Below, one piece after another: positions 701 to 24,965 of a stretch of DNA of 26,924 nt. The DNA is from a virus. The position numbers and the translations under genes were made by a program. Numbering within the stretch: position 1 is the first letter of the stretch; each line of letters opens with the position of its first letter. The notes under the pieces are model-generated. The model was not told the DNA's origin and ran no database searches. It saw only the letters and a list, made by a program, of their open reading frames with translations. The stretch covers positions 1 through 26,924 of IMG/VR virus record IMGVR_UViG_3300046005_001267. One strand, given 5' to 3'.

Positions 701-1303
701 ATGAAGAAAATCGTTATCCTTTTTATTTTTTTAATCCTTTCTTTAATTTCTTTTGGACAGAATGTAAGAATAAAGAATGAAGTGTTTGATGTACTTTATT
801 CACAATCGTTAGAACAACCCCTAATTATTAAATACCGTTCTACCAACCGTCCTACAAATGTGAATAGAGGAGCTATGGATTTTTATAAAGAAGAAAATAT
901 CAAAACATCAGATGCGGATGATTACAAAGCAAACATATATGATAAAGGACATGGTGCACCAGCTGCAACCTTTTCTGATAATATGGTAAATCTAAAACAA
1001 ACATTTTCTTACTTAAATTGTATAATGCAGGACAAATATCTTAATAGAGGTGAATGGAGAATGTTAGAAGAACAAATTCGTAAATGGGATGATACCGAAA
1101 ATATTACAGTACTGATAAAAACATTCTTTGATAAACCTGTAAAAAGAGTATCAACTGGAGCAGCAATTCCATCCTACTTACAAAAACACATCTACTTTGA
1201 AAAACAAAAGAAATGGAGATGTTATGTATTTCTAAATGAAAAACCTAAATTTTCTTGGGAAGAATTGGAAATGGTATGTGAAGCAAAAGACCACAAATTT
1301 TAA
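701..1303 (+). CDS. Secreted DNA/RNA non-specific endonuclease (NUC1, beta-beta-alpha-Me)
   Basis: The 200-residue protein opens with a typical export signal: two Lys, then a hydrophobic stretch to about residue 19 ending SFGQ. A DNA/RNA non-specific endonuclease core follows. DKGH (81-84; family norm DRGH) supplies the putative catalytic His84. Further along, LNCIMQ carries the expected metal-ligand Asn106, and RGEWRMLEE carries the conserved Trp and Glu. Members of this family hydrolyse single- and double-stranded nucleic acid with Mg2+. With a signal peptide it should act in the periplasm or outside the cell. It follows the polymerase fragment after 39 bp with an ATATTTATAG motif between them. 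Its stop overlaps the next start (TAATG), which implies co-translation with the giant protein. The Arg to Lys change in DRGH is conservative and activity seems likely. Its purpose in a phage is unknown; host DNA breakdown after lysis or entry blocking are guesses. Confidence 0.8.
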   Translation: MKKIVILFIFLILSLISFGQNVRIKNEVFDVLYSQSLEQPLIIKYRSTNRPTNVNRGAMDFYKEENIKTSDADDYKANIYDKGHGAPAATFSDNMVNLKQTFSYLNCIMQDKYLNRGEWRMLEEQIRKWDDTENITVLIKTFFDKPVKRVSTGAAIPSYLQKHIYFEKQKKWRCYVFLNEKPKFSWEELEMVCEAKDHKF

Positions 1304-4300
1304 TGAATATGAATATATCTGAATTAATAAATGAGATACTAAGCGAATGGGCTTATAGAGTGGATGATGGACAACCTAATCCAAAAAATGAAAAGCATTT
1401 AGCCCAATTATCAATAGTGCTTTCTGAAATGGGATTATCAAATATTAAAGATGAATTATTTGAAAACATTACAGAAGCTGATAAGAAATTTACAAACCCA
1501 ATTCTTAATAAAGAAATTCCATATAAAGGAGCAGATGGTACATCTAAAACAGGTATTGTTGGTAACTTATTAAGATTACCAAAAGATAGTCCCGGTAGAG
1601 TAGCAGCTGAAAAACTAATGCCACCCGAAGGTTCTCCAGAAAGAGATTCGGTAATGCAAGATTTAGGAAGTGAGAAAGATGGTAAGAGTACAGGTGGTGA
1701 TAAAGAGAAAGGTAAAGAGGGTGAGAAAGGTAAAGAGGGTGAAGGAGAAAAGGGAGGTGGTGAAGAAGAAAAAGCAAAAGCTGCACAAGCTATGTTTGAC
1801 CCAAAAGCAGACCCTGCTATGGGTGCTCGTTTAGATAGAGAGAAAGCGGCAAATGATAAATTAGCACAAAAAGATAAAGAAGATTCTGATGCAGAGAAAT
1901 CAGCAGAAGTACCAAAAGAAGATGGTAAATTTAGTGAACCATCAAACCCACCACCTCAAAATGAAAAGGGTGTTGAGAAAGATGGTAAGGTAGATGGAAC
2001 AACAATTGAAACCGAACCTGGACTGGATGATATTGATAGTAATCTATTAAAGCAAAGGGTTACTGAAATGGATAAGTATTGGGCGGACCATAAAGCTGAT
2101 GTAAAAAAGGCTGAAGGTATTGCTAGAGAGAAAATGGGATATAGTGAGGAGCAAGCTAAAGGATTGAAGAAAGGTACTCCAGAAAAAGCAGCATATGATA
2201 AGGAAGTAAAAAAGAATCAACAACCAACATATAATTTATGTAAAGTATCAATTCCAAATTCAAACTTGTTTTGTAATGGAAACAAAAATATTCCAAGAGC
2301 AGAAATGCCACAATTCAAAGGTGAGCCTGTTGAAGGTTCTCAAGCATGGGATGTATTACAAAAGGCAAAAGAAAAAGACCCAACTGCTACCGAAGCAGAG
2401 GGAGAACCATACTTTAGACAAATGTTGGCTGATAAAGGAATTAAAGTAACCGATGCAGAAGTTCCATCTGAAAATTTAAAGGCAACTCAAAATGAATTAG
2501 TTGGTGATAAAGTATTGGGTATGGAATCTGGAATAGCTGAAGCAATGGCAGATACTATGCCTGATGGCTCTCCTAAAACGGAAGAGCAAAAGGTTAAAGA
2601 TGAAAAAACTAAAAAGAATTTACTTGCACCAATTTTTGTAAGTAACGATGGATATGTAGTTGATGGGCATCATAGATGGGCAGCAATTACAAGATATAAT
2701 ATGGAGCATCCTGATAAGCCAATACCATTGAAAGTAATGATTATTGACCAACCAATTGATGACGCTATAAAAACATCAAATGAATTCGCATCTGAATTTG
2801 GTGTAGCAGCAAAAAGTGGTAAACAAGCAGGACCTGGCGCTGGACCAAATGCAGAACCACCGGCAAATGAACCATCAAGACCAAACACAAATCCAACCGA
2901 AGATAAATCAACTATAAAAAGTATGAAGGGTGAATCAAAAATTATCAAAGGTAAGAAATCTGGCAAAGATATTCAAACAATTGAAATGGAAGGTGGTGGT
3001 ATGGTATTTGGTACACAACATAGAAATACTAAAATGGTTGATGATATAATTGATAATATAAAATCAACTATACCGCAAGAAAAATGGAAAGATATTGTAT
3101 TCGTAGGTGAAGGTGGTGTAACCAATAAAGACACAGGTGAATTAGTATTTAACGATGAAATGGATTACGCAGTACCAAAGTTTCAAGAAATAGGTGCTGG
3201 TGTTGATACATTTGATGGTGATGAATTGGATGTTCACAAACCAGATTCTAAATTATATAAAAAACAAATTGAAAAAACGGGTCTTAATCAATCACAGGTT
3301 AATGCAGGTAATTGGGCTAGTATGATTGGGCAGGGTGAAGGTACTGATACTATGAAAACCACTACATTCTTAGATGATAGTGGTAAACAATTCTTAAATG
3401 ATGCGGCAAAAGAGGCTGGATTCCCGGAAATAAAAAATTGGGATGAACCAACCGAACAGGATATAGATACTCTTTATAGATTATCATTTCCAGAAGATAA
3501 TGGTGATAAAGAAACTAAAATAAATGATATTCAAGTTGCATTTAATGAAATTAGAGATGAAAATATTTTAGAGAAAACAAAAGAATTACAAGCAAAAGGT
3601 AAAATACCAATTACTATTGCAGGTGAAGGTCATATTGATTTGGTTAATAATATGATGAAAAATGAAAATGTACAATATATGAATGAAGAAAATTTACAAT
3701 TAGCTGATAAATTAATGTTAGAAATGATTTATGGTTTTATAGATGAAGCATCTACAACTGGTAACCCTAAATTAGCGGCAAGAAGTAAAAAAACGGGTAA
3801 ATTAGTATATTTCAGTACACCACAATCCAAAAAGGCAGCAATAGCAAATGGAACTCACGAAGACCCTAAAGCTAAAAAAGGAGCTCCTACTAAAGTAGCT
3901 GGTAGTGATATGGATTATAGACAAACTCCTGATATTAAGAAAGATAAAATAGTAGTAGCTCCAAAAGTAACTAAAAAAGCTACTGATACTCCTCCAACTA
4001 AAAAAGAAAGAAGTGAAACTAATAACCCTTACAAAAAAAATGGTGATGAAGGTGAAACTATATTAGATATAAAGCCGGAAGAAATTGATTCTATATTAGA
4101 AAAATATGTAAATGCAGGTGAAGCAACTCCTGATGATATGAGAGAGTTGGCACCAAAATACTCAAATCAAGATATGGCTGATGGGTATTCGGATGAAGAT
4201 TACTATTCAAAAAATAAAAAACGTACAACCGCAGTTAGAAAACAACCATATAAGGTAAATAACAAAACAAGATTAGAATTAAAAAACGCAGGATTCCCTG

Positions 4301-5907
4301 AAAAATATATTAAATTTTTAGAAAGATGTATTAATACACAAGTTAAGGGTAAGAAACCACCTGTAACTGAACTAATCGCTCAGGGAGGAGCAGGGCAAAT
4401 TCAATCTCAATTTGGTGAAGTGATGGCAATGGCATTTATGTCAATCAGAGACCCACAGCAAAGAAGACAACTTGCTGATATTATGAACGCTGAAATACAA
4501 AAATCAGTAGAAGAATTTGGTGGTGGTAAGCAAAGTCCAATTGCAACTAAAGATTGGGTTGAAGCATCACTAACACATGCCGAAGCATTTGATTCAGCAA
4601 TGGATGAGAAGTATGGTAAAGGACAGTGGAAATTTGAAGGAGCTGCTTGGGATATTAAAGCTGATATAGAATCATTGGGATTGGATTATAAAAATAAAGG
4701 ATTCTCAACTGATGTAATGTTAAGAGTTCAACCTTTAGATAAAAATGGTAAACCAAATGGACCGGCTAGAGCACAAAAGAACTCATTAAAAAAAGATGAA
4801 AACATTTTTTTCTTTAATGGTTCAATCAATGAAGTTAATAATTTTGTATTAAATTTCTTAGATGAGAAAGAAAGAAAGAGAGTAAAAGGATATGAAGCGA
4901 TAGCAACAAAAGCGGGAGCATCAAATAAAAATCCAGAAGATAGAGCAGCAGCATTAGCAGCAGCTGAAAGAATTACGGGATTGAAAGGAGCTAAAGCAGT
5001 AGCAGCATTAAAACAAATGTCAGCAGATATTAGAAATAAAGCTTTTGAAGCAGCACCACAAAATGTTAAAGATGCAGTTTCTAAAGTTAGAAATTTTGGA
5101 GCAGCTCAAACGGCATCTGCTGAAAGATTAATTAAAACAGTAAATACTGATATTAAAAATCCAAACAATGTAATTGATAATGCAAAAAACATTGATGGTG
5201 GTGATAAGGATTTTGCTAAATTCTCATATAAAGCAGTTAAAGAATGTAAAGCTAGTGGTACTAAAGATATGACTACATGTATAAGACAAAAATTAAGTAA
5301 AGCTGGTGAAGATACAACTGATGATAGAATATGTAAAGTAGCTGTTTTAGCTTCTAAAGTAGCTATAGCTGCTGGTGATACTAACGCTGAAAAGGCTTTA
5401 AATAAACACTATAATTTAGCAGTTGAAGCTGGAAACGCTTTAATGGAAGTATTACCTGAAAGTGAAGAACTAATGGGAGGTTTGATGCAGAAATTAGCAG
5501 ATGCATTCCCAATGAAGACTTGTATGCAGGGTGAAGAATTTATGTGTATTGATGGTATGAAAGTAACACAAAAGACTTTACAAACTGTATTTGGTGTGGA
5601 TTCTTATGATGAATTACAAAAAGGTATGAAATTAAAGAGATTACCAAGTGGTGAAACTATATTGGTATATGGTGCTAAAGATAAAAACGGAGAAGATATT
5701 CCTATTGGTGTGGTTGGTGCTAGACAAAAGGGTAAGGGATACGAAGGAACTGTTGGTTTTGAGATATCTTGTTCTGATGATTTTGCATTGGCTGTAGCTG
5801 AAGCAAATAAGAAAAACGGAGATGCATCGGAATCAAATGAAAAAGCTAGACAATCTATTGGTAAGAGAGTAGCTACTAGAAAAGTAAAGGCTGATAAGAA
5901 AAAATAG
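1303..5907 (+). CDS. Giant 1534-residue multidomain phage protein (ParB-like and nuclease-like signatures)
   Basis: I do not recognise a named family for the whole protein. Residues about 110-240 are low-complexity Lys/Glu/Gly. VDGHHRWAA at 453-461 resembles the core of ParB-like/sulfiredoxin-fold domains. Residues about 597-780 hold IVFVGEGG and later TIAGEGHIDLV, faintly like TraB/Tiki-type GxxH motifs. Residues about 821-865 are a module repeated in the protein at 7303. Residues about 1010-1190 hold QFGEV (E1039), FSTDVML (D1137) and NSLKK (K1163), compatible with a PD-(D/E)XK nuclease core. The C-terminal part (about 1340-1534) has several Cys and no known motif. The ATG overlaps the upstream stop in TAATG. 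Size and position in the late block suggest a virion or co-injected protein, but no structural motif proves it. The gene is clearly coding; its function is open. Confidence 0.6.
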   Translation: MNMNISELINEILSEWAYRVDDGQPNPKNEKHLAQLSIVLSEMGLSNIKDELFENITEADKKFTNPILNKEIPYKGADGTSKTGIVGNLLRLPKDSPGRVAAEKLMPPEGSPERDSVMQDLGSEKDGKSTGGDKEKGKEGEKGKEGEGEKGGGEEEKAKAAQAMFDPKADPAMGARLDREKAANDKLAQKDKEDSDAEKSAEVPKEDGKFSEPSNPPPQNEKGVEKDGKVDGTTIETEPGLDDIDSNLLKQRVTEMDKYWADHKADVKKAEGIAREKMGYSEEQAKGLKKGTPEKAAYDKEVKKNQQPTYNLCKVSIPNSNLFCNGNKNIPRAEMPQFKGEPVEGSQAWDVLQKAKEKDPTATEAEGEPYFRQMLADKGIKVTDAEVPSENLKATQNELVGDKVLGMESGIAEAMADTMPDGSPKTEEQKVKDEKTKKNLLAPIFVSNDGYVVDGHHRWAAITRYNMEHPDKPIPLKVMIIDQPIDDAIKTSNEFASEFGVAAKSGKQAGPGAGPNAEPPANEPSRPNTNPTEDKSTIKSMKGESKIIKGKKSGKDIQTIEMEGGGMVFGTQHRNTKMVDDIIDNIKSTIPQEKWKDIVFVGEGGVTNKDTGELVFNDEMDYAVPKFQEIGAGVDTFDGDELDVHKPDSKLYKKQIEKTGLNQSQVNAGNWASMIGQGEGTDTMKTTTFLDDSGKQFLNDAAKEAGFPEIKNWDEPTEQDIDTLYRLSFPEDNGDKETKINDIQVAFNEIRDENILEKTKELQAKGKIPITIAGEGHIDLVNNMMKNENVQYMNEENLQLADKLMLEMIYGFIDEASTTGNPKLAARSKKTGKLVYFSTPQSKKAAIANGTHEDPKAKKGAPTKVAGSDMDYRQTPDIKKDKIVVAPKVTKKATDTPPTKKERSETNNPYKKNGDEGETILDIKPEEIDSILEKYVNAGEATPDDMRELAPKYSNQDMADGYSDEDYYSKNKKRTTAVRKQPYKVNNKTRLELKNAGFPEKYIKFLERCINTQVKGKKPPVTELIAQGGAGQIQSQFGEVMAMAFMSIRDPQQRRQLADIMNAEIQKSVEEFGGGKQSPIATKDWVEASLTHAEAFDSAMDEKYGKGQWKFEGAAWDIKADIESLGLDYKNKGFSTDVMLRVQPLDKNGKPNGPARAQKNSLKKDENIFFFNGSINEVNNFVLNFLDEKERKRVKGYEAIATKAGASNKNPEDRAAALAAAERITGLKGAKAVAALKQMSADIRNKAFEAAPQNVKDAVSKVRNFGAAQTASAERLIKTVNTDIKNPNNVIDNAKNIDGGDKDFAKFSYKAVKECKASGTKDMTTCIRQKLSKAGEDTTDDRICKVAVLASKVAIAAGDTNAEKALNKHYNLAVEAGNALMEVLPESEELMGGLMQKLADAFPMKTCMQGEEFMCIDGMKVTQKTLQTVFGVDSYDELQKGMKLKRLPSGETILVYGAKDKNGEDIPIGVVGARQKGKGYEGTVGFEISCSDDFALAVAEANKKNGDASESNEKARQSIGKRVATRKVKADKKK
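1705..1740 (+). repeat. Perfect 18-bp tandem duplication inside the giant gene
   Basis: GAGAAAGGTAAAGAGGGT occurs twice back to back (1705-1722, 1723-1740), with a degenerate continuation after it. It is in frame and encodes the Glu-Lys-Gly-rich linker of the 1303 protein. It probably arose by slippage and is a likely length-variable linker. Confidence 0.85.
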
Positions 5908-15405: not shown

Positions 15406-15609
15406 ATGGCAATTTTAAGAGGGCAGCAACACCCGTCAGCAAAACTGACAGATGAGCAAGTTTTAATCATTAGAGACCTATGGAGAATGGGTCATCGCAA
15501 TATTAAAGTGATTGCCCAAAACAATAAGGTATCACCATCAAATGTATTAAAGATAATCCAACGTAAAACTTGGAATCATTTAAATCAATTTTGGTCTGGT
15601 AGCTTATGA
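15406..15609 (+). CDS. Small helix-turn-helix protein (homing endonuclease-type DNA-binding domain)
   Basis: The 67-residue protein reads SAKLTDEQVLIIRDLWRMG, then VIAQNNKVSPSNVLKII and KTWNHL. This matches the HTH module usually found at the end of HNH homing endonucleases (K-L-T-x3-V-x2-I-R, then a helix-turn-helix, then W-x-H). No nuclease domain is attached. It could be a free-standing regulator or a leftover from an endonuclease gene. Its stop overlaps the next start (ATGA at 15606-15609), so it is coupled to the first Mom-like gene and might regulate it. Confidence 0.65.
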   Translation: MAILRGQQHPSAKLTDEQVLIIRDLWRMGHRNIKVIAQNNKVSPSNVLKIIQRKTWNHLNQFWSGSL

Positions 15610-16379
15610 AAGTAGAAAATAAACAATATTGCGATATCTCTAAATTTTCTATTAGAGAGATTAATAAGAACATAGCAAAGGATATCATTGTCAATAACCA
15701 TTATAGTGGGATATGGACGAAGGTATCCTATGCCATTGGATTATTTTATATATCCGAAGATGAGCACAATTTCTTTAGTGGGGTGAATGAACAATTGGTT
15801 GGAGTTGCCTGTTATGGTGACCCGGTTGGTAGAAATGCCGGCGCATCTATTTCCGAATTACTGCCTAGAGATGGTGTATTAGAATTAACTCGTCTATTCG
15901 TATTTGATGGATATGGTACTAACATTGAGAGTTGGTTCGTTGGGCAATCTTTTGAATGGTTGAGAACTAATGTACCTCGTATAAAAGCACTAATATCTTA
16001 TTCAGACCCAAACGCTGGACACTTAGGAACAGTATATCAAGCTACCAATTGGATATATCAGGGAAATAAAATCAGATGGTCAGATAGTTGGAGTTTTAAG
16101 TGGAGTGAGGATGATGAATGGCATCACTCTCGCACATCTTATGTGAAGTATGGAACGAATGACCCGAAGATAATTCAGACAATGGTTACAAGCCCATTCT
16201 GGATTAAAAGAGAACCTCGTAAGCACCGATATGTATATATTCTAACCAAAGATAAGAAAGAGCGTAAATCGTTCTTAAAATCGCTTAAACATGAGGTATT
16301 TCCATATCCAAAGGTAGAGTTGGATATTATTGATGAGGTTCATAAAATGGACCCAATAGATTTGGTAGTTTCAGAATAA
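15606..16379 (+). CDS. Mom-like acyltransferase (DNA adenine modification), copy 1
   Basis: The 257-residue protein has the order of motifs of the phage Mu Mom family, a GNAT-fold group. They are NHYSG (31-35), YG (70-71), LELTRLF (92-98), SYSD (131-134) and GHLGTVYQATNWIYQG (138-153). Near the C-terminus are RKHRYV and LKHEVFPYPK. In Mu, Mom turns adenine into a carbamoylmethyl derivative that protects phage DNA from restriction; the substrate here is unknown. It is clearly paralogous to the gene at 16638: both start MKVE-x-K-x-YCD and share the HY, ELTRL, SY-x-D and YQATNWIYQG blocks. It is translationally coupled to the HTH gene before it. The promoter for the 16400 gene lies in its last codons. 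Family call is good; the actual reaction is inferred. Confidence 0.75.
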   Translation: MKVENKQYCDISKFSIREINKNIAKDIIVNNHYSGIWTKVSYAIGLFYISEDEHNFFSGVNEQLVGVACYGDPVGRNAGASISELLPRDGVLELTRLFVFDGYGTNIESWFVGQSFEWLRTNVPRIKALISYSDPNAGHLGTVYQATNWIYQGNKIRWSDSWSFKWSEDDEWHHSRTSYVKYGTNDPKIIQTMVTSPFWIKREPRKHRYVYILTKDKKERKSFLKSLKHEVFPYPKVELDIIDEVHKMDPIDLVVSE

Positions 16380-16399: not shown

Positions 16400-16654
16400 A
16401 TGGCAAGAGTAGAACCCAACGTTAAGGATAAACCACGTAAATTTGAACACATCTACAAAGATGATGATGGATGTGAATCAATTTGGAAGTACGATTTGGA
16501 TAAATTCGCAAATGGACCTATATCAGTAGAAAACAAATATCCTACTGGGTATATAAAGGATTTGAAACAAAAACAAAGATTAGCAAAGGCTGAACGGAGT
16601 TTATCTATTTTAGAAAAAGCAAAACAAGCAAAACAAAATGAAGGTAGAAGGTAA
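16400..16654 (+). CDS. Unknown 84-residue charged protein between the two Mom-like genes
   Basis: No family is recognised. The N-terminal half holds FEHIYKDDDGCESIWKYDL and PISVENKYPTGYIKD. The C-terminal third is a Lys/Ala/Gln-rich helix (QRLAKAERSLSILEKAKQ) that may coil. There is no signal peptide or membrane segment. A strong promoter ends 7 bp before its ATG. Its 3' end overlaps Mom-like copy 2 by 17 bp, so the two are likely made together. A helper or regulator of the modification enzymes is possible from position alone. Confidence 0.6.
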   Translation: MARVEPNVKDKPRKFEHIYKDDDGCESIWKYDLDKFANGPISVENKYPTGYIKDLKQKQRLAKAERSLSILEKAKQAKQNEGRR

Positions 16655-17438
16655 AAATTATTGTGATACATCCAAAGTATATGTAGCACCAATAGCAAAG
16701 AGTATCGCTAAAGATATTATTGTTAAGAAGCACTATACTCACGCTTGGACAGCTTGTAGATATGCAATTGGAATATATTACAAATCAGAAGATGCCAATA
16801 CCTTTGATGGTGATAAACTTATAGGTTGTTTAATCTATGGTTTTCCTGTTGGAGCAAAAGCATCCACTTCTATTTGTGAAGGATTAACTAAAGATAACAT
16901 TTTAGAATTGACCCGTTTATATTGTGATGATGGGTATGGTTCTAATATTGAATCATTTGCATTAGGACAATCTTTCAAATGGTTAAAGGAAAACGATAAA
17001 GCAATTAAGGTATTACTATCATACGCCGATAACGGACAAGCTCACTTAGGAGGAATTTATCAGGCTACCAATTGGATTTATCAGGGATTATCTACGGATA
17101 TTGCATTGATGCCAAATTGGGGTATATCATTACACAAAGACCCGTATCAATGGATTCATAGTAGGACTGTGTTTTCAATGTGGGGTAGTGGTAACTTAGC
17201 ACACTTACAAATGGAAATAGGTAAGCAAGGATATAAAGAGTTTTGGAGAAGGGAAGAACCACCAAAGCATAGATATGTTCAATTACTTGCGCAAGATAAA
17301 AAAGAAAAAAAAGATTTGATGAAACGATTGAAGCATGAGATTAGACCTTATCCAAAAGATACGGCATCTTATAATACGGAAGTGGTTCATCACCCAACAA
17401 CATACGAAGCACCTGAAGGAGCTGAAAATTTTTGGTAA
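16638..17438 (+). CDS. Mom-like acyltransferase (DNA adenine modification), copy 2
   Basis: The 266-residue paralogue of the 15606 gene has the same motif order: KKHYTHAW (31-38), YGFPVG (67-72), LELTRLYCDDGYGSNIES (89-106), SYAD (128-131), AHLGG then YQATNWIYQG (135-150). PPKHRYVQLL and LKHEIRPYPK lie near the end. The start ATG overlaps the 16400 gene by 17 bp. The two copies have diverged in length and in the middle regions, which points to an old duplication or separate gains and perhaps different substrates. The C-terminal tail after PYPK is unique. The glycosyltransferase gene follows after 3 bp. A role in modifying phage DNA against restriction is inferred from Mu Mom. Confidence 0.75.
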   Translation: MKVEGKNYCDTSKVYVAPIAKSIAKDIIVKKHYTHAWTACRYAIGIYYKSEDANTFDGDKLIGCLIYGFPVGAKASTSICEGLTKDNILELTRLYCDDGYGSNIESFALGQSFKWLKENDKAIKVLLSYADNGQAHLGGIYQATNWIYQGLSTDIALMPNWGISLHKDPYQWIHSRTVFSMWGSGNLAHLQMEIGKQGYKEFWRREEPPKHRYVQLLAQDKKEKKDLMKRLKHEIRPYPKDTASYNTEVVHHPTTYEAPEGAENFW

Positions 17439-17441
17439 TAT

Positions 17442-18554
17442 ATGAGAGTATTAGTAATTCCGAATTATACAAATTTCGGACAAGAGAAAGACATTAATAG
17501 AGATTCATTTCTATTAGTATTTAAATCATTTTTAGATAATACTAAAATTGGTAAAGAATGGGAATGGATATTACCATATCCTGATATGGACAATCATCCT
17601 GGTATTATAAACCAATTTGAATATCCAAATGTTTCACTTCGTAGAATGGATGGATTGGATACCTTTCCACCTAAAATGAGAGTAAACTATCCACACAAAT
17701 TTTTTGATAGATTGGTTGAGAAAGAACAATTTAATTTAGTATGGTCACATTTGCCTGAATGGACACATGAATTTAAAATTACTCGTATCTATAATAAGAC
17801 ACAGCCTATTATTGGTTATTGCCATTGGTGGGAAATAAAAGATAATGGAGCTAGAGATGATAATTCATTTTGGAAAAACATTAAGGGTACATTGGATATG
17901 AAAGTATGCGGTGTGAACTCTCAATGGGTTAAGGATTTAGTTCTTAAAAGAGCAGCTGAAGAATTTCAACCACACATCATAGAAAAATTAGATAAGATTA
18001 TACAGCCTTGGTATTTGGGTACTGACGAATTTATACCAACCAAAGAATACAAAAAGAAAACTATTGTATTCAATCATAGAAATAATGGTTATACCGGTGG
18101 TGAATGGTTTTTTGAAACTATGGATGAATTGTGGAGTGAAAGACAAGATTTTGAAGTATGGACTACATTAGGTGATATGAAAAAACCATATACTAAATAT
18201 ATTGGACATGCTGATAGAAATGTTTATATGAATCAATTAGCAGAGGCTCATTTTGGAGTGGGATGTTTTCAAACATATTCTGCTTGGAGTATGAGTACAA
18301 CCGATGGACTTAGTAGAGGTGTACCTTATTTATTACCAAACGGATTATGTTATCCCGAAATGGTTGGAACTGATTATCCACTTCTTTACAATGGTAAAGC
18401 CGAATTTAAAGAAAAGGTAATTGGATTATTGGATGAAACAATTGAAAGACCTGATGTTAGTGATATATCAAAGGCATTGTTATGGGAGAATTCATTAAAG
18501 AGTTGGGATATTGAAAACAACTTTGAAAAAATGGCAAGGGTATTCGTAGATTAA
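17442..18554 (+). CDS. GT-B fold glycosyltransferase, possibly DNA-modifying
   Basis: The 370-residue protein starts MRVLVIPNYTNFG, typical of the first strand and loop of a GT-B domain. The N-domain holds NLVWSHLPEW (98-107) and IIGYCHWWEIKD (123-134). The C-domain starts near TIVFNHRN (207-214). The nucleotide-sugar site resembles TTDGLSRGVPYLLPNGL (286-302) followed by YPEM (304-307). It should transfer a sugar from a nucleotide donor. The target is unknown. Its tight packing (3 bp) behind a Mom-like gene and 21 bp ahead of the DNA polymerase suggests modified phage DNA as the acceptor. Virion or cell-surface glycosylation is the alternative. It is not an evident match to T4 alpha- or beta-glucosyltransferase. 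Confidence 0.7.
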   Translation: MRVLVIPNYTNFGQEKDINRDSFLLVFKSFLDNTKIGKEWEWILPYPDMDNHPGIINQFEYPNVSLRRMDGLDTFPPKMRVNYPHKFFDRLVEKEQFNLVWSHLPEWTHEFKITRIYNKTQPIIGYCHWWEIKDNGARDDNSFWKNIKGTLDMKVCGVNSQWVKDLVLKRAAEEFQPHIIEKLDKIIQPWYLGTDEFIPTKEYKKKTIVFNHRNNGYTGGEWFFETMDELWSERQDFEVWTTLGDMKKPYTKYIGHADRNVYMNQLAEAHFGVGCFQTYSAWSMSTTDGLSRGVPYLLPNGLCYPEMVGTDYPLLYNGKAEFKEKVIGLLDETIERPDVSDISKALLWENSLKSWDIENNFEKMARVFVD

Positions 18555-18575: not shown

Positions 18576-21098
18576 ATGTATAAAAATATTTATTATCAGA
18601 GAGAAAGAAATTTAGTGCACATTTGGGATGATAGGTTAGGTTATAGAACCTTTCCATATACACGATATGCTTATGAAAAAGCACAAAGAGGACAATACAC
18701 ATCTTTGTACGGAGATAAGTTAGATAAGATTTTTAAATTCACAAAAGATGACCCGAATTTATTTGAATCGGATGTAGCTGAAACCACTAGAGTTTTGGTT
18801 GATACATATACTGATTCAGATATTCCATCCGAAGGGCACGTTACACTTACATATGATATTGAGTGTGAAATGGATAGTGGTTTACCTGATGTAGAAAAAT
18901 CAGAAAATGAATTAACCGCAATTGGTTTGCACGACTCTGCTACTGACCATTATTGGGTTTTGATTATGGACAAAGCTGGTAAGATGAGTGAGAAGAAGAC
19001 TGGCAATCGTACTGTAATTCCTTTCAGAGATGAGAGGGATATGTGTATGAAGTATTTAGAACTATATGAGTACATCAATCCAACAATCGTAACTGGTTGG
19101 AACATTGATAACTTTGATACTCCTTATTTATATAATCGTATTAAAAGACTATTAGGTGTTAAGCACGCTAATAGGTTAAGCCCAATAGGTGAATGTTTCT
19201 GGTCTCCATATCGTAAGAGATTTTATATGGCCGGCGTATCTTATTTAGATTACCTTGCTCTATATAAGAACTTCACCTATTCGGAATTAGATAACTATCG
19301 TTTAGATAGTATTGCTATGAAGGAATTGGGTAGAGGTAAGATTGAGTACGCTGGTAACTTAGATGATTTGTTCAAAGATGATATTGAAAAGTTTATTGAG
19401 TATAACTTAGTTGACGTTCAATTGGTGGTTGATATGGATAAGAAGTTACAATTCATTGATACGGCTAGAGGTATCTGTCACGCTGGACACGTACCATATG
19501 AAGATTTCGTTTACTCATCAAAATACTTAGAGGGTGCATTGTTATGTTACCTTAAGAGAAGAAACATTGTAGCTCCTAACAAACCTGCGGATAGACAAGA
19601 AAGGATGCAAGCACTTAGAGATAATGACCAAGAGAAATTCATTGGAGCATATGTGAAGGCACCTATCGTTGGTAAGTACGAATGGATATATGACTTGGAT
19701 TTAACTTCACTATATCCTTCAATCATTATGACAACTAATATTTCACCAGAAACCAAAGTTGGTAAGATTGATAATTGGGATGCACAAAAGTTTATGAAAG
19801 GTGAGATTGATACTTTCAACATTGGTGAGAAAACAATTACAAAAGAAAACCTTAAGAAGTTATTTGATGAAAGTAAATACGCTATCTCATCTAACGGAGT
19901 TCTTTACACTACGGATAAAGTTGGATGTATTCCTGATATATTAGACCTTTGGTTTAAACAACGTGTGGAGTTTAGAGCATTAGAGAAAAAATATGGTGAG
20001 AGTGGTGATAAAGAGAAATATGATTTTTATAAGAAAAGACAATTAGTACAAAAGATTTTATTGAACTCATTATATGGAGTATTAGGATTACCTGCTTTCA
20101 GATTCTATGATGTGGATAATGCTGAGGCGGTAACAACAACAGGTCAAACCGTGATTAAATCAACGGCTGATATGGCTAATATTAAATACAATAAAGAGTT
20201 AGGAACAACTGGACAAGATTTCAACATATACATTGATACGGATTCGGTATTCTTTTCAGCAGTACCCATATTAGACCATCGTTATAAAGATTGGAGAAGT
20301 TTAACTGATGCAGAGATTGCTATAAAGGTGGATGATATCGCTGGTGAAACTCAAGACTTCTTAAATAAGTTTTATGATGTATTGGCTGAGAAAGTATTCA
20401 ATGTTGATAAAACAAAACATAGATTCCAAATCAAAAAAGAATTCGTAAGTAGAAGTGGTATTTGGATTGCTAAGAAACGATACGCTCAATGGATTATTGC
20501 AGAGAATGGTATTCCTTGTGACACATTGCAAGTTAAAGGATTGGATGTGGTTCGTTCATCGTACCCCGCACAATTCCGTAAGTTTATGAGTGGTATCCTT
20601 ATTTCAATCCTACAAGGTGAAACTGAAATGGTACTAACTGATAGAATATATGATTTTAAAAAGGATTTAGTTAATATGGATGTAACTTCAATAGCTAAGA
20701 ATTCAGCAGTAAAAGAATTATCAAAATACATTCCAAAGAAAAAAGATAATAGAGCAATGTTCCAATTCAATAGTGGAACTCCGGCGCATGTAAAAGCAGC
20801 AATTGCACATAATCAATTATTAGTTCACTTCAAATGTGCAGCTAAGCACGCTCCAATGAGAGATGGTGATAAAATTAAGTGGGTATATCTAAAACAAAAT
20901 CCATTTGGGCTAGATGCTGTTGGGTTCAAAGGACATGATGACCCGAATGAGATAATGGACTTGGTAAGAACCTATATTGATTATGATAAGATTTTTGAGA
21001 GGGAATTACTTAAGAAATTAGAGGATTTCTATGGTGCATTGGGTTGGGGAGCAGTTTTATCCTCACAAAAAACGGCAGAACAATTCTTCGCATTCTAA
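18576..21098 (+). CDS. 43: Replicative DNA polymerase, family B (T4 gp43-like)
   Basis: The 840-residue enzyme carries all proofreading and polymerase motifs. Exo I is YDIE (D94, E96), Exo II is NIDNFD (176-181) and Exo III is YNLVD (276-280). Motif A is DLTSLYPSII with D375. Motif B is KILLNSLYG (493-501). Motif C is DTDS (554-557). A KKRYA block follows motif C. It copies the phage genome together with the gp45-like clamp and gp44-like loader encoded downstream. The length is close to the 898 residues of T4 gp43. The last residues (EQFFAF) look like a clamp-binding tail, as in T4. No promoter of the common type precedes it, so it is probably read from the modification-island transcript. Confidence 0.96.
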   Translation: MYKNIYYQRERNLVHIWDDRLGYRTFPYTRYAYEKAQRGQYTSLYGDKLDKIFKFTKDDPNLFESDVAETTRVLVDTYTDSDIPSEGHVTLTYDIECEMDSGLPDVEKSENELTAIGLHDSATDHYWVLIMDKAGKMSEKKTGNRTVIPFRDERDMCMKYLELYEYINPTIVTGWNIDNFDTPYLYNRIKRLLGVKHANRLSPIGECFWSPYRKRFYMAGVSYLDYLALYKNFTYSELDNYRLDSIAMKELGRGKIEYAGNLDDLFKDDIEKFIEYNLVDVQLVVDMDKKLQFIDTARGICHAGHVPYEDFVYSSKYLEGALLCYLKRRNIVAPNKPADRQERMQALRDNDQEKFIGAYVKAPIVGKYEWIYDLDLTSLYPSIIMTTNISPETKVGKIDNWDAQKFMKGEIDTFNIGEKTITKENLKKLFDESKYAISSNGVLYTTDKVGCIPDILDLWFKQRVEFRALEKKYGESGDKEKYDFYKKRQLVQKILLNSLYGVLGLPAFRFYDVDNAEAVTTTGQTVIKSTADMANIKYNKELGTTGQDFNIYIDTDSVFFSAVPILDHRYKDWRSLTDAEIAIKVDDIAGETQDFLNKFYDVLAEKVFNVDKTKHRFQIKKEFVSRSGIWIAKKRYAQWIIAENGIPCDTLQVKGLDVVRSSYPAQFRKFMSGILISILQGETEMVLTDRIYDFKKDLVNMDVTSIAKNSAVKELSKYIPKKKDNRAMFQFNSGTPAHVKAAIAHNQLLVHFKCAAKHAPMRDGDKIKWVYLKQNPFGLDAVGFKGHDDPNEIMDLVRTYIDYDKIFERELLKKLEDFYGALGWGAVLSSQKTAEQFFAF

Positions 21099-21101
21099 CT
21101 G

Positions 21102-21114
21102 GTTGATTATCAAC
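21102..21114 (+). promoter_or_regulatory. Dyad GTTGAT-T-ATCAAC, operator-like
   Basis: A perfect 6+6 inverted repeat around a single T, just after the polymerase stop and 20 bp before the -33 box of the next promoter. It could be a repressor or activator site for the GHKL-nuclease gene. No T run follows, so it is not a good terminator. Confidence 0.3.
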
Positions 21115-21134: not shown

Positions 21135-21166
21135 TTTGGCAGATTCAAGTATTTTTCGTATATTTG
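21135..21166 (+). promoter_or_regulatory. Bacteroidota-type promoter (TTTGG-N19-TATATTTG) for the GHKL-nuclease gene
   Basis: TTTGG at 21135-21139 and TATATTTG at 21159-21166, 19 bp apart. The spacer ends ATTTTTCG like the copies at 8066 and 22805. The ATG at 21200 leaves a leader of about 30 nt. Confidence 0.8.
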
Positions 21167-21199: not shown

Positions 21200-22804
21200 A
21201 TGAGTAACTTCATACCACAAACCGCTCCAGTCTTAAATCAAAAAGCAAAAAAGCAAATAATTTTACAAAGTAAAAAGCCAATCTTAACAATAGGAGCTGC
21301 TAAGAAAGCAGCATCAACTAATATTGAATGGTATCATGTTCTATCCGAATTAGCAGATAATGCTATTCTTGTTGATAAATCAAAATGCGTTAATGTTACT
21401 ATTAACATGCATTACAATGAAGATAATGAAAAATCTTATATAGAGGTTATTGATGATTCAATAGGTATTCCAGAAAAGGATATATTGAATATATTTGATT
21501 ATGGTCAATCTGCAAATCAAGGTAAGATGTTATTGTGTAAAATGGGTATGGGCTTAAAAGGTGCAATATGGGGATTGGGTGAATTTGATTATTTAATAAC
21601 AAAAACATCAAACGGTAATAAGTGCCAGGCTCAACCAATGAAATATGATAGCGATTCTGATATATTGGAATATATTCAAATTAAACCATCATCATCTGAA
21701 TTAGATGCACAATTAAGTGGTACTATTGTTAAAATAAAACGTGTTAATGATAAGTTGCCAAATTGGACAAATCAATCTCACTTTGATGCATTTGTTTTTA
21801 AAATAAATAGTATGTATGCAAACTTATTGCATGAATCAAGAGTTAAGATACACATTTCTTATAGTAATAGTTCTGGTTCTAAATGGTATAAAGAATGCGT
21901 AGGTAGTTTCCCATTAATGTCTAATCCTAGACATTTGTTAAACAATGATATTAGTATTGGATTTAACGAGCCAACATATATAAAAGATACAACAACACCT
22001 ATTGATAAAATAGAAATCAAAACAAAAAATACTAAAGTAAAACTTACGGCTTGGCACAAACCAACTCCAAATCAAGTTGAAAAGTATTTTGATACTTCTA
22101 AAAGTAAAGCATATAATCCTCAAACATATAAAGATTCTCTATTTGGATATGGGTCAGAAACTGGAGGTATTACAATTATGTATAGAGGTAAGTATATTGA
22201 GTTTGGTGTAGAAAAACATGCATCTAGAACCGAAAATCAGGGTATTATTTTGGAGATGGATGATGATAGTGGATTATCATTTACTGGATACAAAAACACT
22301 TTACAAAAAAACAACAATTATAGAGAGATGTTAGAAGCTGTTGATGCTTTCTTAAAAGAAAACGGATTTTTTGTTCGTTCAATAGTAGGAACACCATCGG
22401 TTGAGGAAGATGAAATTGTTAAGAAGTTTTTAGAATATATTCAAACAGATGCAATATATTTAGAGAGTCTTGGTATAGAAAGTTATCAAAAGCAAGTTGA
22501 AACTTGGATTAGAACTGAAGTTGGGGAAACTGATATTATTGTTAGAGATTACAATGATTCTGAAATAATTACTTGTGTTATTGAAGCTAAAAAAGATAGA
22601 TGCGGTGGATATGAAGCAGCTCAATTATGGGGATATATGGCATATCATAATTGCAAAAAAGGTATATTATTATCTGGAGCAGATGAACAACCATCCTTCA
22701 ATGTTATGATTAAATCTCTTAAAGATTTTTGTAATCTACCAGAAGTTGAAATTAAAAAAATGAATGTTAAAACTTTAAAGGCTGGTAAGTTTTTTAACAT
22801 TTAA
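21200..22804 (+). CDS. GHKL ATPase fused to a PD-(D/E)XK nuclease
   Basis: The 534-residue protein begins with a GHKL-type ATP-binding domain. The N-box is SELADNA (E50, D53, N54). The G1 box is DDSIGI (85-90), with Ser where Gly is usual. The G2 box is GMGLKGA (116-122). A middle region resembles the transducer part of MORC, MutL and Topo VI B proteins. The C-terminus has a PD-(D/E)XK core: GETDIIV with D445, IEAKKD with E462 and K464, and AAQLWGYMAY with the helix Gln often seen in this class. It may use ATP to clamp DNA and then cut it. The gene stands alone between two promoters of the same type, in the replication cluster. It is not the T4 topoisomerase large subunit, since the nuclease is extra. 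Recombination, host DNA breakdown and inter-phage conflict are all possible. Confidence 0.75.
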   Translation: MSNFIPQTAPVLNQKAKKQIILQSKKPILTIGAAKKAASTNIEWYHVLSELADNAILVDKSKCVNVTINMHYNEDNEKSYIEVIDDSIGIPEKDILNIFDYGQSANQGKMLLCKMGMGLKGAIWGLGEFDYLITKTSNGNKCQAQPMKYDSDSDILEYIQIKPSSSELDAQLSGTIVKIKRVNDKLPNWTNQSHFDAFVFKINSMYANLLHESRVKIHISYSNSSGSKWYKECVGSFPLMSNPRHLLNNDISIGFNEPTYIKDTTTPIDKIEIKTKNTKVKLTAWHKPTPNQVEKYFDTSKSKAYNPQTYKDSLFGYGSETGGITIMYRGKYIEFGVEKHASRTENQGIILEMDDDSGLSFTGYKNTLQKNNNYREMLEAVDAFLKENGFFVRSIVGTPSVEEDEIVKKFLEYIQTDAIYLESLGIESYQKQVETWIRTEVGETDIIVRDYNDSEIITCVIEAKKDRCGGYEAAQLWGYMAYHNCKKGILLSGADEQPSFNVMIKSLKDFCNLPEVEIKKMNVKTLKAGKFFNI

Positions 22805-22836
22805 TTTGGTACTTTCAGGTATTTTTCGTATATTTG
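22805..22836 (+). promoter_or_regulatory. Bacteroidota-type promoter (TTTGG-N19-TATATTTG) for the clamp operon
   Basis: TTTGG at 22805-22809 starts right after the GHKL-nuclease stop. TATATTTG lies at 22829-22836 with a 19-bp spacer ending ATTTTTCG. The ATG of the clamp gene is at 22872. It probably drives the run of genes to the window end. Confidence 0.8.
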
Positions 22837-22871: not shown

Positions 22872-23567
22872 ATGAACAAAGCAAAATTTGATGGTTTCGT
22901 TAATCGTTACAACTTAGGTGGTGAGATTGAATCCGTTATGGTAAAATCCGATGATACAAACTTATCGGTAAGAATGATTTCAGATGACAAAACCTTATTA
23001 GGTGATGTTACAGTAGTAGGTGGTGAATTTCCAAGCGGTGAGTTTGGTATTTACACTACTTCACAATTAAAAGGTTTATTATCTGTATTAGATGATGCTA
23101 TCACTGTAGAAGAAGTTACTGGGGCATTAAAGTTTTCTGATAAGAAAACAAAGGTACAATATATGTTAGCAGCACCATCGGTGATTCCTGCAGTACCTGA
23201 TTTAAAAGCGTTACCTGCATTTGATGCGGAGATAACATTAGATGATGACTTTGTAAATAAGTTCATCAAATCAAAAGGTGTATTGGCTGACTCTGATACA
23301 TTTACATTTACATTCAAAGCTGGTAAAGGTGAAGTTATTTTAGGATACTCATCAATCAACTCAAATAGAATTTCTATTGAAGTAGATGCAACCGCTAAAG
23401 AAGATATTGAACCAATTGCATTTTCTGCAAAGTATTTGAAAGCTATCTTAATGGCTAACAAAGGTTCTAAATCATCTTCATTAAAAATCTCATCTAAGGG
23501 ATTATCGCATGTAGGATTCGTTGATGGAGATTACACAGCAAATTATTATTTAGTACAAATTAAATAA
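22872..23567 (+). CDS. 45: DNA polymerase sliding clamp, T4 gp45-like
   Basis: The 231-residue length matches T4 gp45 (228). Its pattern is two clamp domains with alternating strands: MNKAKFDGFVNRYNLGGEI and EFGIYTTSQLKGLLSVLDD in the first, DDDFVNKFIKSKG and FSAKYLKAILMANKG in the second, ending in NYYLVQIK. It forms a ring that tethers the polymerase. In T4 it also activates late transcription, which would fit a separate late promoter class here. It leads the clamp operon 36 bp after a strong promoter. Clamps have weak motifs, so the call rests on length, layout and the gp43/gp44 neighbours. Confidence 0.88.
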   Translation: MNKAKFDGFVNRYNLGGEIESVMVKSDDTNLSVRMISDDKTLLGDVTVVGGEFPSGEFGIYTTSQLKGLLSVLDDAITVEEVTGALKFSDKKTKVQYMLAAPSVIPAVPDLKALPAFDAEITLDDDFVNKFIKSKGVLADSDTFTFTFKAGKGEVILGYSSINSNRISIEVDATAKEDIEPIAFSAKYLKAILMANKGSKSSSLKISSKGLSHVGFVDGDYTANYYLVQIK

Positions 23568-23753: not shown

Positions 23754-24965
23754 ATGAGCTTTTGGGATACTGAACCACAAAAACCTGTCTTTGACTTTGA
23801 ATCTGAAAAAGCAAAGTTAAAAGAAAATATGGACTACCTTATGACAATGTCTGTTCAAGAACAAACGTTATATAAGAAGTGGGTTGAATTGCAAGAACCT
23901 ACAATGATTCAAGCAAAATCCCAAATCGCATCTTATTACGATTTACAATGGAAACCAACTGATATCAACAATAAGGAGCTAACGATAAAAGAAATTGAAT
24001 CGTTAGACCCTTACGTTGAGATTGTTGATGACCCGAAGGAATCTACTAAATGGGCAGCGGTAAGACGTATGATTCACACAATGGATTTTACAGCAAACCC
24101 TGGCCGTAATGTAAAGATTAATGTAAAGGATAGAGTGAGTGGAAAACTATTAGGACAAATTTCATTAGCATCCGATGTAACCGCTATGGGAGTTAGAGAT
24201 AACTTCATTGGTTGGACTAAGGATAATAAGTTTGTTGATGGTAAGTTAAACAATACTACTATCGCTTCTACTATTGTATGTACTCAACCATTAGGTTATA
24301 ACTTTTTAGGTGGTAAGTTAATCGCTATGATGACAACTACGCCGGAGGTTAGAGCATATTGGAAATCAAAGTATGATAATGTTTTGATTGCAGTAGGTAC
24401 AACATCTTTATATGGTATTCATTCACAATATAATGGTATTCCTTTATTTAAAACATTAGGTGAATCAGCTGGTAAGATTAGTTTAAAGCCGGATGATAAA
24501 TTCTATGACCCTTGGCATCAATGGATTAAGGAAAATCGTGCAGAGTGGTATAAACAAAATATCTCAGATGAGAGAGCTCGTAATGGTGCTAGTATGGGTT
24601 ATGAATCCAATGGACCTGTTAGTGGTATCAAACAAAAAATATTAAGTGCTATCTTCAAAGAGTGTGGTATTAAGGCAACTGAATATCATCACGGATTTAA
24701 GAGAGGTGTTTATATGGCTATGATGTATGAGAACGGATGTGAGTATCTTAGAAACGAAATTACCGAAGATAAATTAATTCTTAAAGATAAGTTTAAGCAA
24801 GGTACTGAATACATCAACAAATGGTGGAAGAAACATGCAATCAGTAGATATACAAAACTACATGATGAAGGAAGAATTAAACCTGAACACTTATTCTACA
24901 TAGATGCTATTGGAATTAGTTGGGAAGAAATGAAAGTAAAATACCTATCAGAAGTAGGGAGATAA
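23754..24965 (+). CDS. DUF4338/DruA-like protein
   Basis: The 403-residue protein has a central block that resembles DUF4338, the domain of DruA from the Druantia phage-defence system. The block reads GQISLASDV (135-142), RDNFIGWT (148-155), NFLGGKLIAMM (183-193), YWKSKYDNVLIAV (202-214), TTSLYGIHSQYNGIPLFK (216-233) and TLGESAGKI (234-242). The flanking N-terminal (1-110) and C-terminal (250-403, Trp/Tyr/Lys-rich) parts are not recognised. From memory, similar proteins occur in marine T4-like phages with no known role. It sits between the clamp and dUTPase genes, so a DNA-related function is likely. The Y-x-A-N-W region of DUF4338 resembles that of Mom-like enzymes, which may hint at a shared fold. 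The family call is by pattern and moderate. Confidence 0.5.
   Translation: MSFWDTEPQKPVFDFESEKAKLKENMDYLMTMSVQEQTLYKKWVELQEPTMIQAKSQIASYYDLQWKPTDINNKELTIKEIESLDPYVEIVDDPKESTKWAAVRRMIHTMDFTANPGRNVKINVKDRVSGKLLGQISLASDVTAMGVRDNFIGWTKDNKFVDGKLNNTTIASTIVCTQPLGYNFLGGKLIAMMTTTPEVRAYWKSKYDNVLIAVGTTSLYGIHSQYNGIPLFKTLGESAGKISLKPDDKFYDPWHQWIKENRAEWYKQNISDERARNGASMGYESNGPVSGIKQKILSAIFKECGIKATEYHHGFKRGVYMAMMYENGCEYLRNEITEDKLILKDKFKQGTEYINKWWKKHAISRYTKLHDEGRIKPEHLFYIDAIGISWEEMKVKYLSEVGR

What the first reader, a model, noticed from the sequence alone, without database searches (positions are those of the whole stretch)
21200..22804. GHKL ATPase fused to a PD-(D/E)XK nuclease inside a phage replication cluster
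One protein has an N-box, a modified G1 box (DDSIGI), a G2 box, then D445 and E462-A-K464 of a PD-(D/E)XK nuclease. GHKL-plus-nuclease designs recall MORC-like and MutL-like conflict or repair proteins, but I know no named phage system with this make-up. It is a lone gene with its own promoter and a dyad in front, between gp43 and gp45 where T4 has no such gene. It may process recombination ends, cut host or rival DNA, or replace a topoisomerase-like function.
Basis: partly seen in the sequence, partly recalled or inferred. Interest (0 to 1): 0.8.

Follow-up and report, generated by a model that had tools for sequence, protein, structure and literature searches.

The report
Optional clamp-tailed phage ATPase-nuclease gene
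A T4-like phage carries, as an optional and exchangeable gene between its DNA polymerase and sliding-clamp genes, a known kind of ATP-driven DNA-cutting protein from bacterial defence systems; it ends in a look-alike of the polymerase's clamp-binding tail, which suggests a nuclease that rides on the phage's own replication machine.

Summary
The gene is real. ORF 21200-22804 (534 aa) has an intact GHKL ATPase, an S5-like middle domain and a PD-(D/E)XK nuclease; key residues (D445, E462, K464, Q475) are invariant across 12 relatives. The nuclease profile matches NucS/EndoMS. dN/dS is 0.09.
The design is not new: it is that of paraMORC3 (Iyer 2008) and of VcSduA, a GHKL-Shedu protein shown to block phages (2025). 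Full-length relatives (20-24% identity) lie beside restriction systems, in prophages and on plasmids. The window protein does not match the Shedu nuclease (DUF4263) or any PADLOC model.
Two things appear new. (1) It is an accessory cassette: about 10 other contigs carry it, while 47 have polymerase directly followed by clamp, one 98% identical at both genes. A 37%-identical allele sits at the same site behind the same promoter. (2) The protein ends KAGKFFNI, like this phage's polymerase (KTAEQFFAF). Among 328 distinct C-termini, FF-x-[FILM] at the very end occurs only in polymerases and this protein. T4 polymerase, gp55 and gp33 dock on the clamp through such tails.
Best reading: a clamp-tethered, ATP-gated paraMORC-type nuclease acting on replicating DNA, more likely for conflict than repair. 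New variant of a known kind.

The parts
21200..22804 (+). GHKL-S5-PD-(D/E)XK protein, 534 aa
   Evidence: dN/dS 0.09 and 0.18 against the 86% and 71% alleles
21320..21754 (+). GHKL (Bergerat) ATPase domain, aa 41-185
   Evidence: PF13589 E 7.5e-11, PF02518 E 9.7e-8; Foldseek best PDB matches SMCHD1 ATPase module, Hsp90, Top6B, GyrB, MutL
21347..21361 (+). N-box E50-L-A-D53-N54
   Evidence: E50 and D53 invariant in 12 relatives, N54 in at least 90%
21452..21466 (+). G1 box D85-D-S-I-G89 (D-x-[SA]-x-G family form)
   Evidence: D85 and G89 invariant in 12
21521..21580 (+). G2 box/ATP lid GKMLLCKMGMGLKGAIWGLG
   Evidence: G116, G118, K120, A122 invariant in 12
21755..22309 (+). S5-like transducer/middle domain, aa 186-370, with invariant K365 (22292-22294) as candidate lysine finger
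   Evidence: K365 invariant in 12; SMCHD1 GHKL+S5 module is top PDB fold match
22400..22735 (+). PD-(D/E)XK nuclease domain, aa 401-512; D445 (22532-22534), E462-A-K464 (22583-22591), Q475 (22622-22624)
   Evidence: profile match to NucS/EndoMS and, weakly, Cas4 in PDB; AF2 order H403-416, E433-439, E442-449, E457-464, H470-482, E488-492
22772..22801 (+). C-terminal tail TLKAGKFFNI, proposed clamp-interacting peptide resembling the polymerase tail KTAEQFFAF
   Evidence: FFx[FILM] at the very end only in polymerases and this protein among 328 distinct C-tails
21135..21166 (+). Bacteroidota-type promoter TTTG-N20-TATATTTG in front of the gene
22805..22836 (+). second copy of the promoter, in front of the clamp (23-base core identical to the first)
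   Evidence: single copy in empty-site relatives
21102..21114 (.). dyad GTTGATTATCAAC, only in the window allele group and the 37% allele
18576..21098 (+). B-family DNA polymerase (gp43-like), tail ...TAEQFFAF
   Evidence: PHROG 262 E 2.7e-180; tails
22872..23567 (+). sliding clamp (gp45-like)
   Evidence: PHROG 223 E 1.1e-12

Best explanation
It is a phage-borne, paraMORC-type ATP-gated DNA endonuclease that docks on the phage's own sliding clamp. The GHKL-S5 module most likely dimerises around or on DNA when ATP binds and controls the NucS/RecB-like nuclease domain (inferred from the families). The KxFFx[F/I/L] tail imitates the polymerase tail and tethers the enzyme to clamps loaded on replicating DNA (inferred from sequence). 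The gene behaves as a promoter-plus-gene cassette in the gap between polymerase and clamp, with the promoter present at both its edges, and is replaced by other alleles there (shown by comparison of loci). Because relatives sit in restriction, prophage and mobile-element contexts, and a GHKL-nuclease of the same layout is a proven anti-phage system, its most likely use is conflict: cutting competing or incorrectly marked DNA during phage replication. I put the conflict purpose at about 45%, and identity plus clamp docking at about 60%.
For: Architecture and intact catalytic residues. Full-length co-linear relatives: Priestia plasmid beside dcm, SNF2 and Sau3AI-type genes; Clostridium beside hsdR-S-M-like genes (by eye); a prophage beside integrase, HNH and a BglII-like endonuclease (by eye); a phage end beside an FRG-domain-like gene (by eye); between serine recombinases (by eye). 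VcSduA precedent. Accessory cassette: empty pol-clamp junctions in 47 contigs, e.g. L122 at 98%/98% identity; a 37% allele with identical 5' flank in L067-L069. Tail: all four alleles keep FF near the end (KAGKFFNI, KAGKFFNI, KAGKFFSL, DGKDFFTFN) although the last 34 residues are only 21% identical to the 37% allele; unique to polymerases and this protein; in a 207-kb relative the polymerase is the only one of 273 ORFs ending exactly so. The T4 gp43 tail SLDFLF binds gp45, its deletion abolishes binding, and the gp55/gp33/gp43 tails are interchangeable (PMC12746103, PMC2988020). NucS is stimulated by the sliding clamp (PMC8228993 abstract).
Against: Nothing shows ATPase or nuclease activity, or clamp binding. 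The tail was noticed after the fact, and the 37% allele has one extra residue. If docked on the phage clamp, the enzyme would sit on its own DNA, so self/non-self discrimination is unexplained. Neighbouring genes (the 17442-18554 gene, dUTPase) also vary between phages, so allele swapping alone does not prove conflict. Mom-like modification genes are present with and without the cassette, so no specific modification partner is shown. Similarity to the bacterial family is only 20-24%.
Confidence: 0.5

Rival explanations
1. Replication-coupled repair enzyme: a MutL-like ATPase fused to a NucS/EndoMS-like nuclease that rides on the clamp and removes mismatches, damaged or stalled structures in the phage's own DNA.
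For: Nuclease profile's best solved relatives are NucS/EndoMS, whose activity is enhanced by the clamp; GHKL-S5 module folds like SMCHD1 and MutL; clamp-like tail; place in the replication cluster.
Against: Absent from most close relatives (47 empty junctions against about 10 filled), so not needed for replication; no MutS in eight related contigs; bacterial relatives lie in defence and mobile contexts.
Confidence: 0.27
2. Selfish, homing-like mobile gene: the nuclease cuts phages that lack the cassette at or near the pol-clamp gap and is copied in by recombination.
For: Lone nuclease gene in an intergenic gap of a T4-like phage, present or absent between otherwise 98% identical neighbours, with a promoter copy on either side.
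Against: Large ATPase-nuclease of a family with other roles, not a compact homing enzyme; the same gap can hold a different gene (groEL-like in L114).
Confidence: 0.1
3. rIIA-like protein: the phage's counterpart of T4 rIIA, a GHKL protein with a variable C-terminus that counters host exclusion.
For: rIIA models are among the viral fold matches; rIIA is described as N-terminal GHKL plus variable C-terminus (PMC7824862).
Against: No tblastn match in 50,697 phage records, which include many T4-like phages; fold matches are to the shared GHKL fold with large rmsd; the PD-(D/E)XK domain with all catalytic residues is shared with paraMORC-like proteins instead.
Confidence: 0.05
4. Host-DNA degradation nuclease that supplies nucleotides.
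For: Nuclease gene set among replication genes, in a cluster with RNR and dUTPase.
Against: Accessory; ATPase gating and a clamp-like tail are not needed for bulk degradation.
Confidence: 0.06

Closest known systems
paraMORC3 family (Iyer, Abhiman and Aravind 2008, PMC2292703)
   Same: N-terminal GHKL, S5 domain, C-terminal RecB-related restriction-fold nuclease with E-D-ExK motifs; some members stand alone without a conserved neighbourhood
   Different: Described members are cellular; in the three papers of the held library that contain both 'paraMORC' and 'phage' I found no phage-encoded member, allele cassette or clamp tail described, though one of them (PMC3710099) was not read
VcSduA, a GHKL Shedu system (proposed Shedu type I-D) of Vibrio cholerae (PMC12137116)
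   Same: GHKL ATPase N-terminus, clamp-like middle domain, PD-(D/E)XK C-terminus in one protein
   Different: Nuclease there is DUF4263/SduA_C; no member of the present family matches that model, and a GHKL-DUF4263-like protein (L162) is not recovered by our profile
NucS/EndoMS mismatch endonuclease
   Same: Related nuclease core (E 1.4e-4) and coupling to the sliding clamp
   Different: No GHKL domain; different N-terminal domain; the tail here resembles the phage polymerase's
MutL
   Same: GHKL plus S5 module
   Different: Nuclease domain unrelated; no MutS found in related phages
T4 rIIA
   Same: Phage GHKL protein
   Different: No sequence match; no such nuclease domain known to me

Membership tests
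paraMORC3 | GHKL domain with intact ATP-binding motifs | tested here: met
paraMORC3 | S5 domain after the GHKL domain with conserved basic residue | tested here: met
   K365 invariant in 12; SMCHD1 GHKL+S5 module is the best PDB fold match; model confidence is only moderate there
paraMORC3 | C-terminal RecB-related nuclease with E-D-ExK motifs | tested here: met
   E403 invariant upstream of D445/E462/K464
paraMORC3 | Direct sequence grouping with the published paraMORC3 members | not tested
Shedu (SduA, DUF4263) | DUF4263/SduA_C (PF14082) nuclease domain | tested here: not met
   no match at E up to 5 in any of 12 members; no PADLOC match for the window protein
MutL | MutL equivalog model | tested here: not met
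   only the 86% relative touched TIGR00585, at 13.6 bits against a cut-off of 180
NucS/EndoMS | full NucS model (N-terminal DNA-binding plus nuclease domain) | tested here: not met
   13.1 bits against a cut-off of 216, nuclease core only
type II topoisomerase subunit | GHKL plus Toprim or topoisomerase-specific domains | tested here: not met
   no topoisomerase family in Pfam; C-terminus is PD-(D/E)XK
rIIA | sequence match to phage rIIA proteins | tested here: not met
   no tblastn match in 50,697 phage records
clamp-binding (CIP/PIP) protein | physical binding to the sliding clamp through the C-tail | not testable with these tools
   tail similarity and rarity only

The most novel reading that the evidence does not exclude
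Some T4-like phages carry an exchangeable clamp-guided restriction factor: a paraMORC-type ATPase-nuclease that has acquired the replicative polymerase's clamp-docking tail, so that it rides with the replisome and destroys competing or foreign replicating DNA.
Probability: 0.3. Interest if true: 0.82.

Novelty: new variant of a known kind. Interest (0 to 1): 0.6.

Why it matters
GHKL-nuclease proteins (paraMORC3, VcSduA) are known from bacterial defence and restriction loci, but as far as I know what recruits them to DNA is open. A phage version with a readable candidate docking tail for a sliding clamp of a well-studied type makes that testable in vitro, and would show a phage using a bacterial defence-type enzyme inside its own replication machine. 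It would also link MORC-type ATPases, whose action on DNA is debated, to replication clamps.

Tried and rejected
PADLOC, PHROGs and NCBIfam gave no specific family. A first AlphaFold2 run with three sequences was useless (pLDDT 33.7); twelve sequences gave 68.9. A link between the gene and the two Mom-like modification genes was tested and dropped: those genes are present with or without it. Topoisomerase replacement and rIIA were tested and not supported. Shedu membership was tested and not met. No relative was found in phage records, nor in genome contigs with the phage-only profile. Bacteroidota genomes could not be sampled, as no centre genome of that phylum was reachable. The dyad in front of the gene was checked and is not conserved in all alleles.

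Full report
Observation. The reading frame 21200-22804 (+, 534 aa) is as described. Residues 46-175 match HATPase_c_3 (E 7.5e-11) and HATPase_c (E 9.7e-8), both above Pfam's cut-offs. Single-sequence evidence for the nuclease was weak (Mrr_cat E 0.017). I therefore collected relatives and built profiles.

Relatives. In IMG/VR the protein is found in three further contigs at 100%, two at 86% and one at 71% identity, plus a 91% fragment at a contig edge (L091). It is absent from 50,697 phage records. A plasmid of Priestia megaterium encodes a full-length co-linear relative (24%, E 1e-8) beside cytosine methyltransferase, SNF2 helicase and Sau3AI-type genes. Further full-length relatives are in Clostridium beside hsdR-S-M-like genes, a Clostridia MAG beside type I restriction genes, a haloarchaeon and a Dehalococcoidia bacterium, a prophage beside HNH and BglII-like endonucleases, a phage end beside an FRG-domain-like gene, and between serine recombinases. 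The neighbours were named by eye from their sequences. Apart from the L064 protein, these are about 50% or more identical to each other across phyla and 20-24% to the phage group, which forms its own fully supported clade.

Anatomy. In the 12-member alignment E50, D53, D85, G89, G116, G118, K120, K365, E403, D445, E462, K464, Q475, L476 and Y479 are invariant. The Ser in the G1 box is a family trait (mostly D-x-[SA]-x-G). An AlphaFold2 model on this alignment has mean pLDDT 68.9 and shows the canonical PD-(D/E)XK order with D445, E462/K464 and Q475 in place. Its best PDB matches are the SMCHD1 ATPase module, then Hsp90, Top6B, GyrB and MutL. A profile of the nuclease half alone matches NucS (E 1.4e-4) and EndoMS (3.8e-4), then weakly Cas4 (0.028), by sequence in the PDB. 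The protein is under purifying selection (dN/dS 0.09 and 0.18). Both active sites look intact; activity is not shown.

Genomic behaviour. Using the clamp as bait I fetched 71 loci of this phage group. In 47 of them the polymerase is followed by the clamp with a gap of about 24-80 bases; L122 has polymerase and clamp 98% identical to the window and no gene in between. In the window the promoter is present twice, one copy in front of the nuclease gene and one in front of the clamp, with a 23-base identical core; the empty sites of close relatives have one copy. L067-L069 have a 37%-identical allele behind an identical leader, between a 98% polymerase and a 99-100% clamp. L114 has a groEL-like gene there instead (named by eye). 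So this is an accessory, exchangeable cassette at an insertion hot spot. Caution: other genes of the region also vary.

The tail. The polymerases of this phage group end in KTA[EQ][KQ]FF[AS]F. The nuclease alleles end in KAGKFFNI, KAGKFFNI, KAGKFFSL and DGKDFFTFN. Among 328 distinct C-termini of ORFs of at least 150 aa from these loci and a 207-kb relative, FF-x-[FILM] at the very end is found only in polymerases and this protein; in the 207-kb relative the polymerase is the only one of 273 ORFs ending exactly so. In T4 the polymerase tail SLDFLF sits in a pocket of the clamp and loss of the last six residues abolishes binding (PMC12746103); gp55 and gp33 use highly similar, interchangeable tails (PMC2988020). 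The cellular relatives lack this tail; most end in YY or YV. I infer that the phage version has acquired clamp docking. Binding itself is untested, and the comparison was made after the fact.

What it is and is not. The layout meets the published description of paraMORC3 (GHKL, S5, RecB-like nuclease; stand-alone members known). VcSduA, which shares the layout, blocks phages and needs both active sites. Membership in Shedu is not supported: DUF4263 is not detected in any of 12 members, and a GHKL-DUF4263-like protein from a Chloroflexota genome is not recovered by our profile. MutL, NucS, topoisomerase and rIIA were tested and are not met. No MutS was found in eight related contigs up to 207 kb.

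Mechanism. Shown: domains, catalytic residues, selection, cassette behaviour, tail similarity. Inferred: ATP-driven clamping on DNA, nuclease gating, clamp docking, and use in conflict rather than repair. The main rival is a clamp-coupled repair nuclease; accessory distribution and the defence contexts of relatives tip the balance, not more.

Host. The promoter form TTTG-N20-TAnnTTTG is typical of Bacteroidota (own knowledge). It occurs 6 times in the window (1.3 expected) and 32 times in the 207-kb relative (7.7 in simple mononucleotide shuffles). The nearest isolated phage by polymerase is Microcystis phage Mel-JY01 at 52%; a 250-aa gene, the size of a clamp, directly follows its polymerase, and no such cassette lies in the stretch read.

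Noticed in passing
23754-24965: Protein with a strong match to DruA of the Druantia defence system (PF14236, E 1.5e-17), directly after the clamp and present in nearly all relatives, so a near-core gene of this phage group.
   Followed up: partly
15606-16379 and 16638-17438: Two Mom-like DNA modification genes (PHROG 1384, E 2e-47 and 2e-46) close together in the replication cluster, conserved with and without the nuclease cassette.
   Followed up: partly
17442-18554: 370-aa protein without any Pfam or PHROG match, directly upstream of the polymerase, whose alleles range from 98% to about 30% identity between phages with 98% identical polymerases.
   Followed up: no
L114:2631-4597: A groEL-like chaperonin gene occupies the pol-clamp gap of a relative, which marks the gap as an insertion hot spot.
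   Followed up: partly
L131:10275-11750: In a distant relative whose polymerase ends NKFFEL, another ORF downstream of the clamp loader ends NKFFDLE; possibly a second clamp-docking protein.
   Followed up: no
1303-5907: 1534-aa protein with almost no family match (one PHROG of unknown function, E 3e-11).
   Followed up: no
L018:9206-11383: In a Clostridia MAG the paraMORC-like protein is in frame with an upstream stretch that looks by eye like a plasmid replication initiator (725-aa frame).
   Followed up: no
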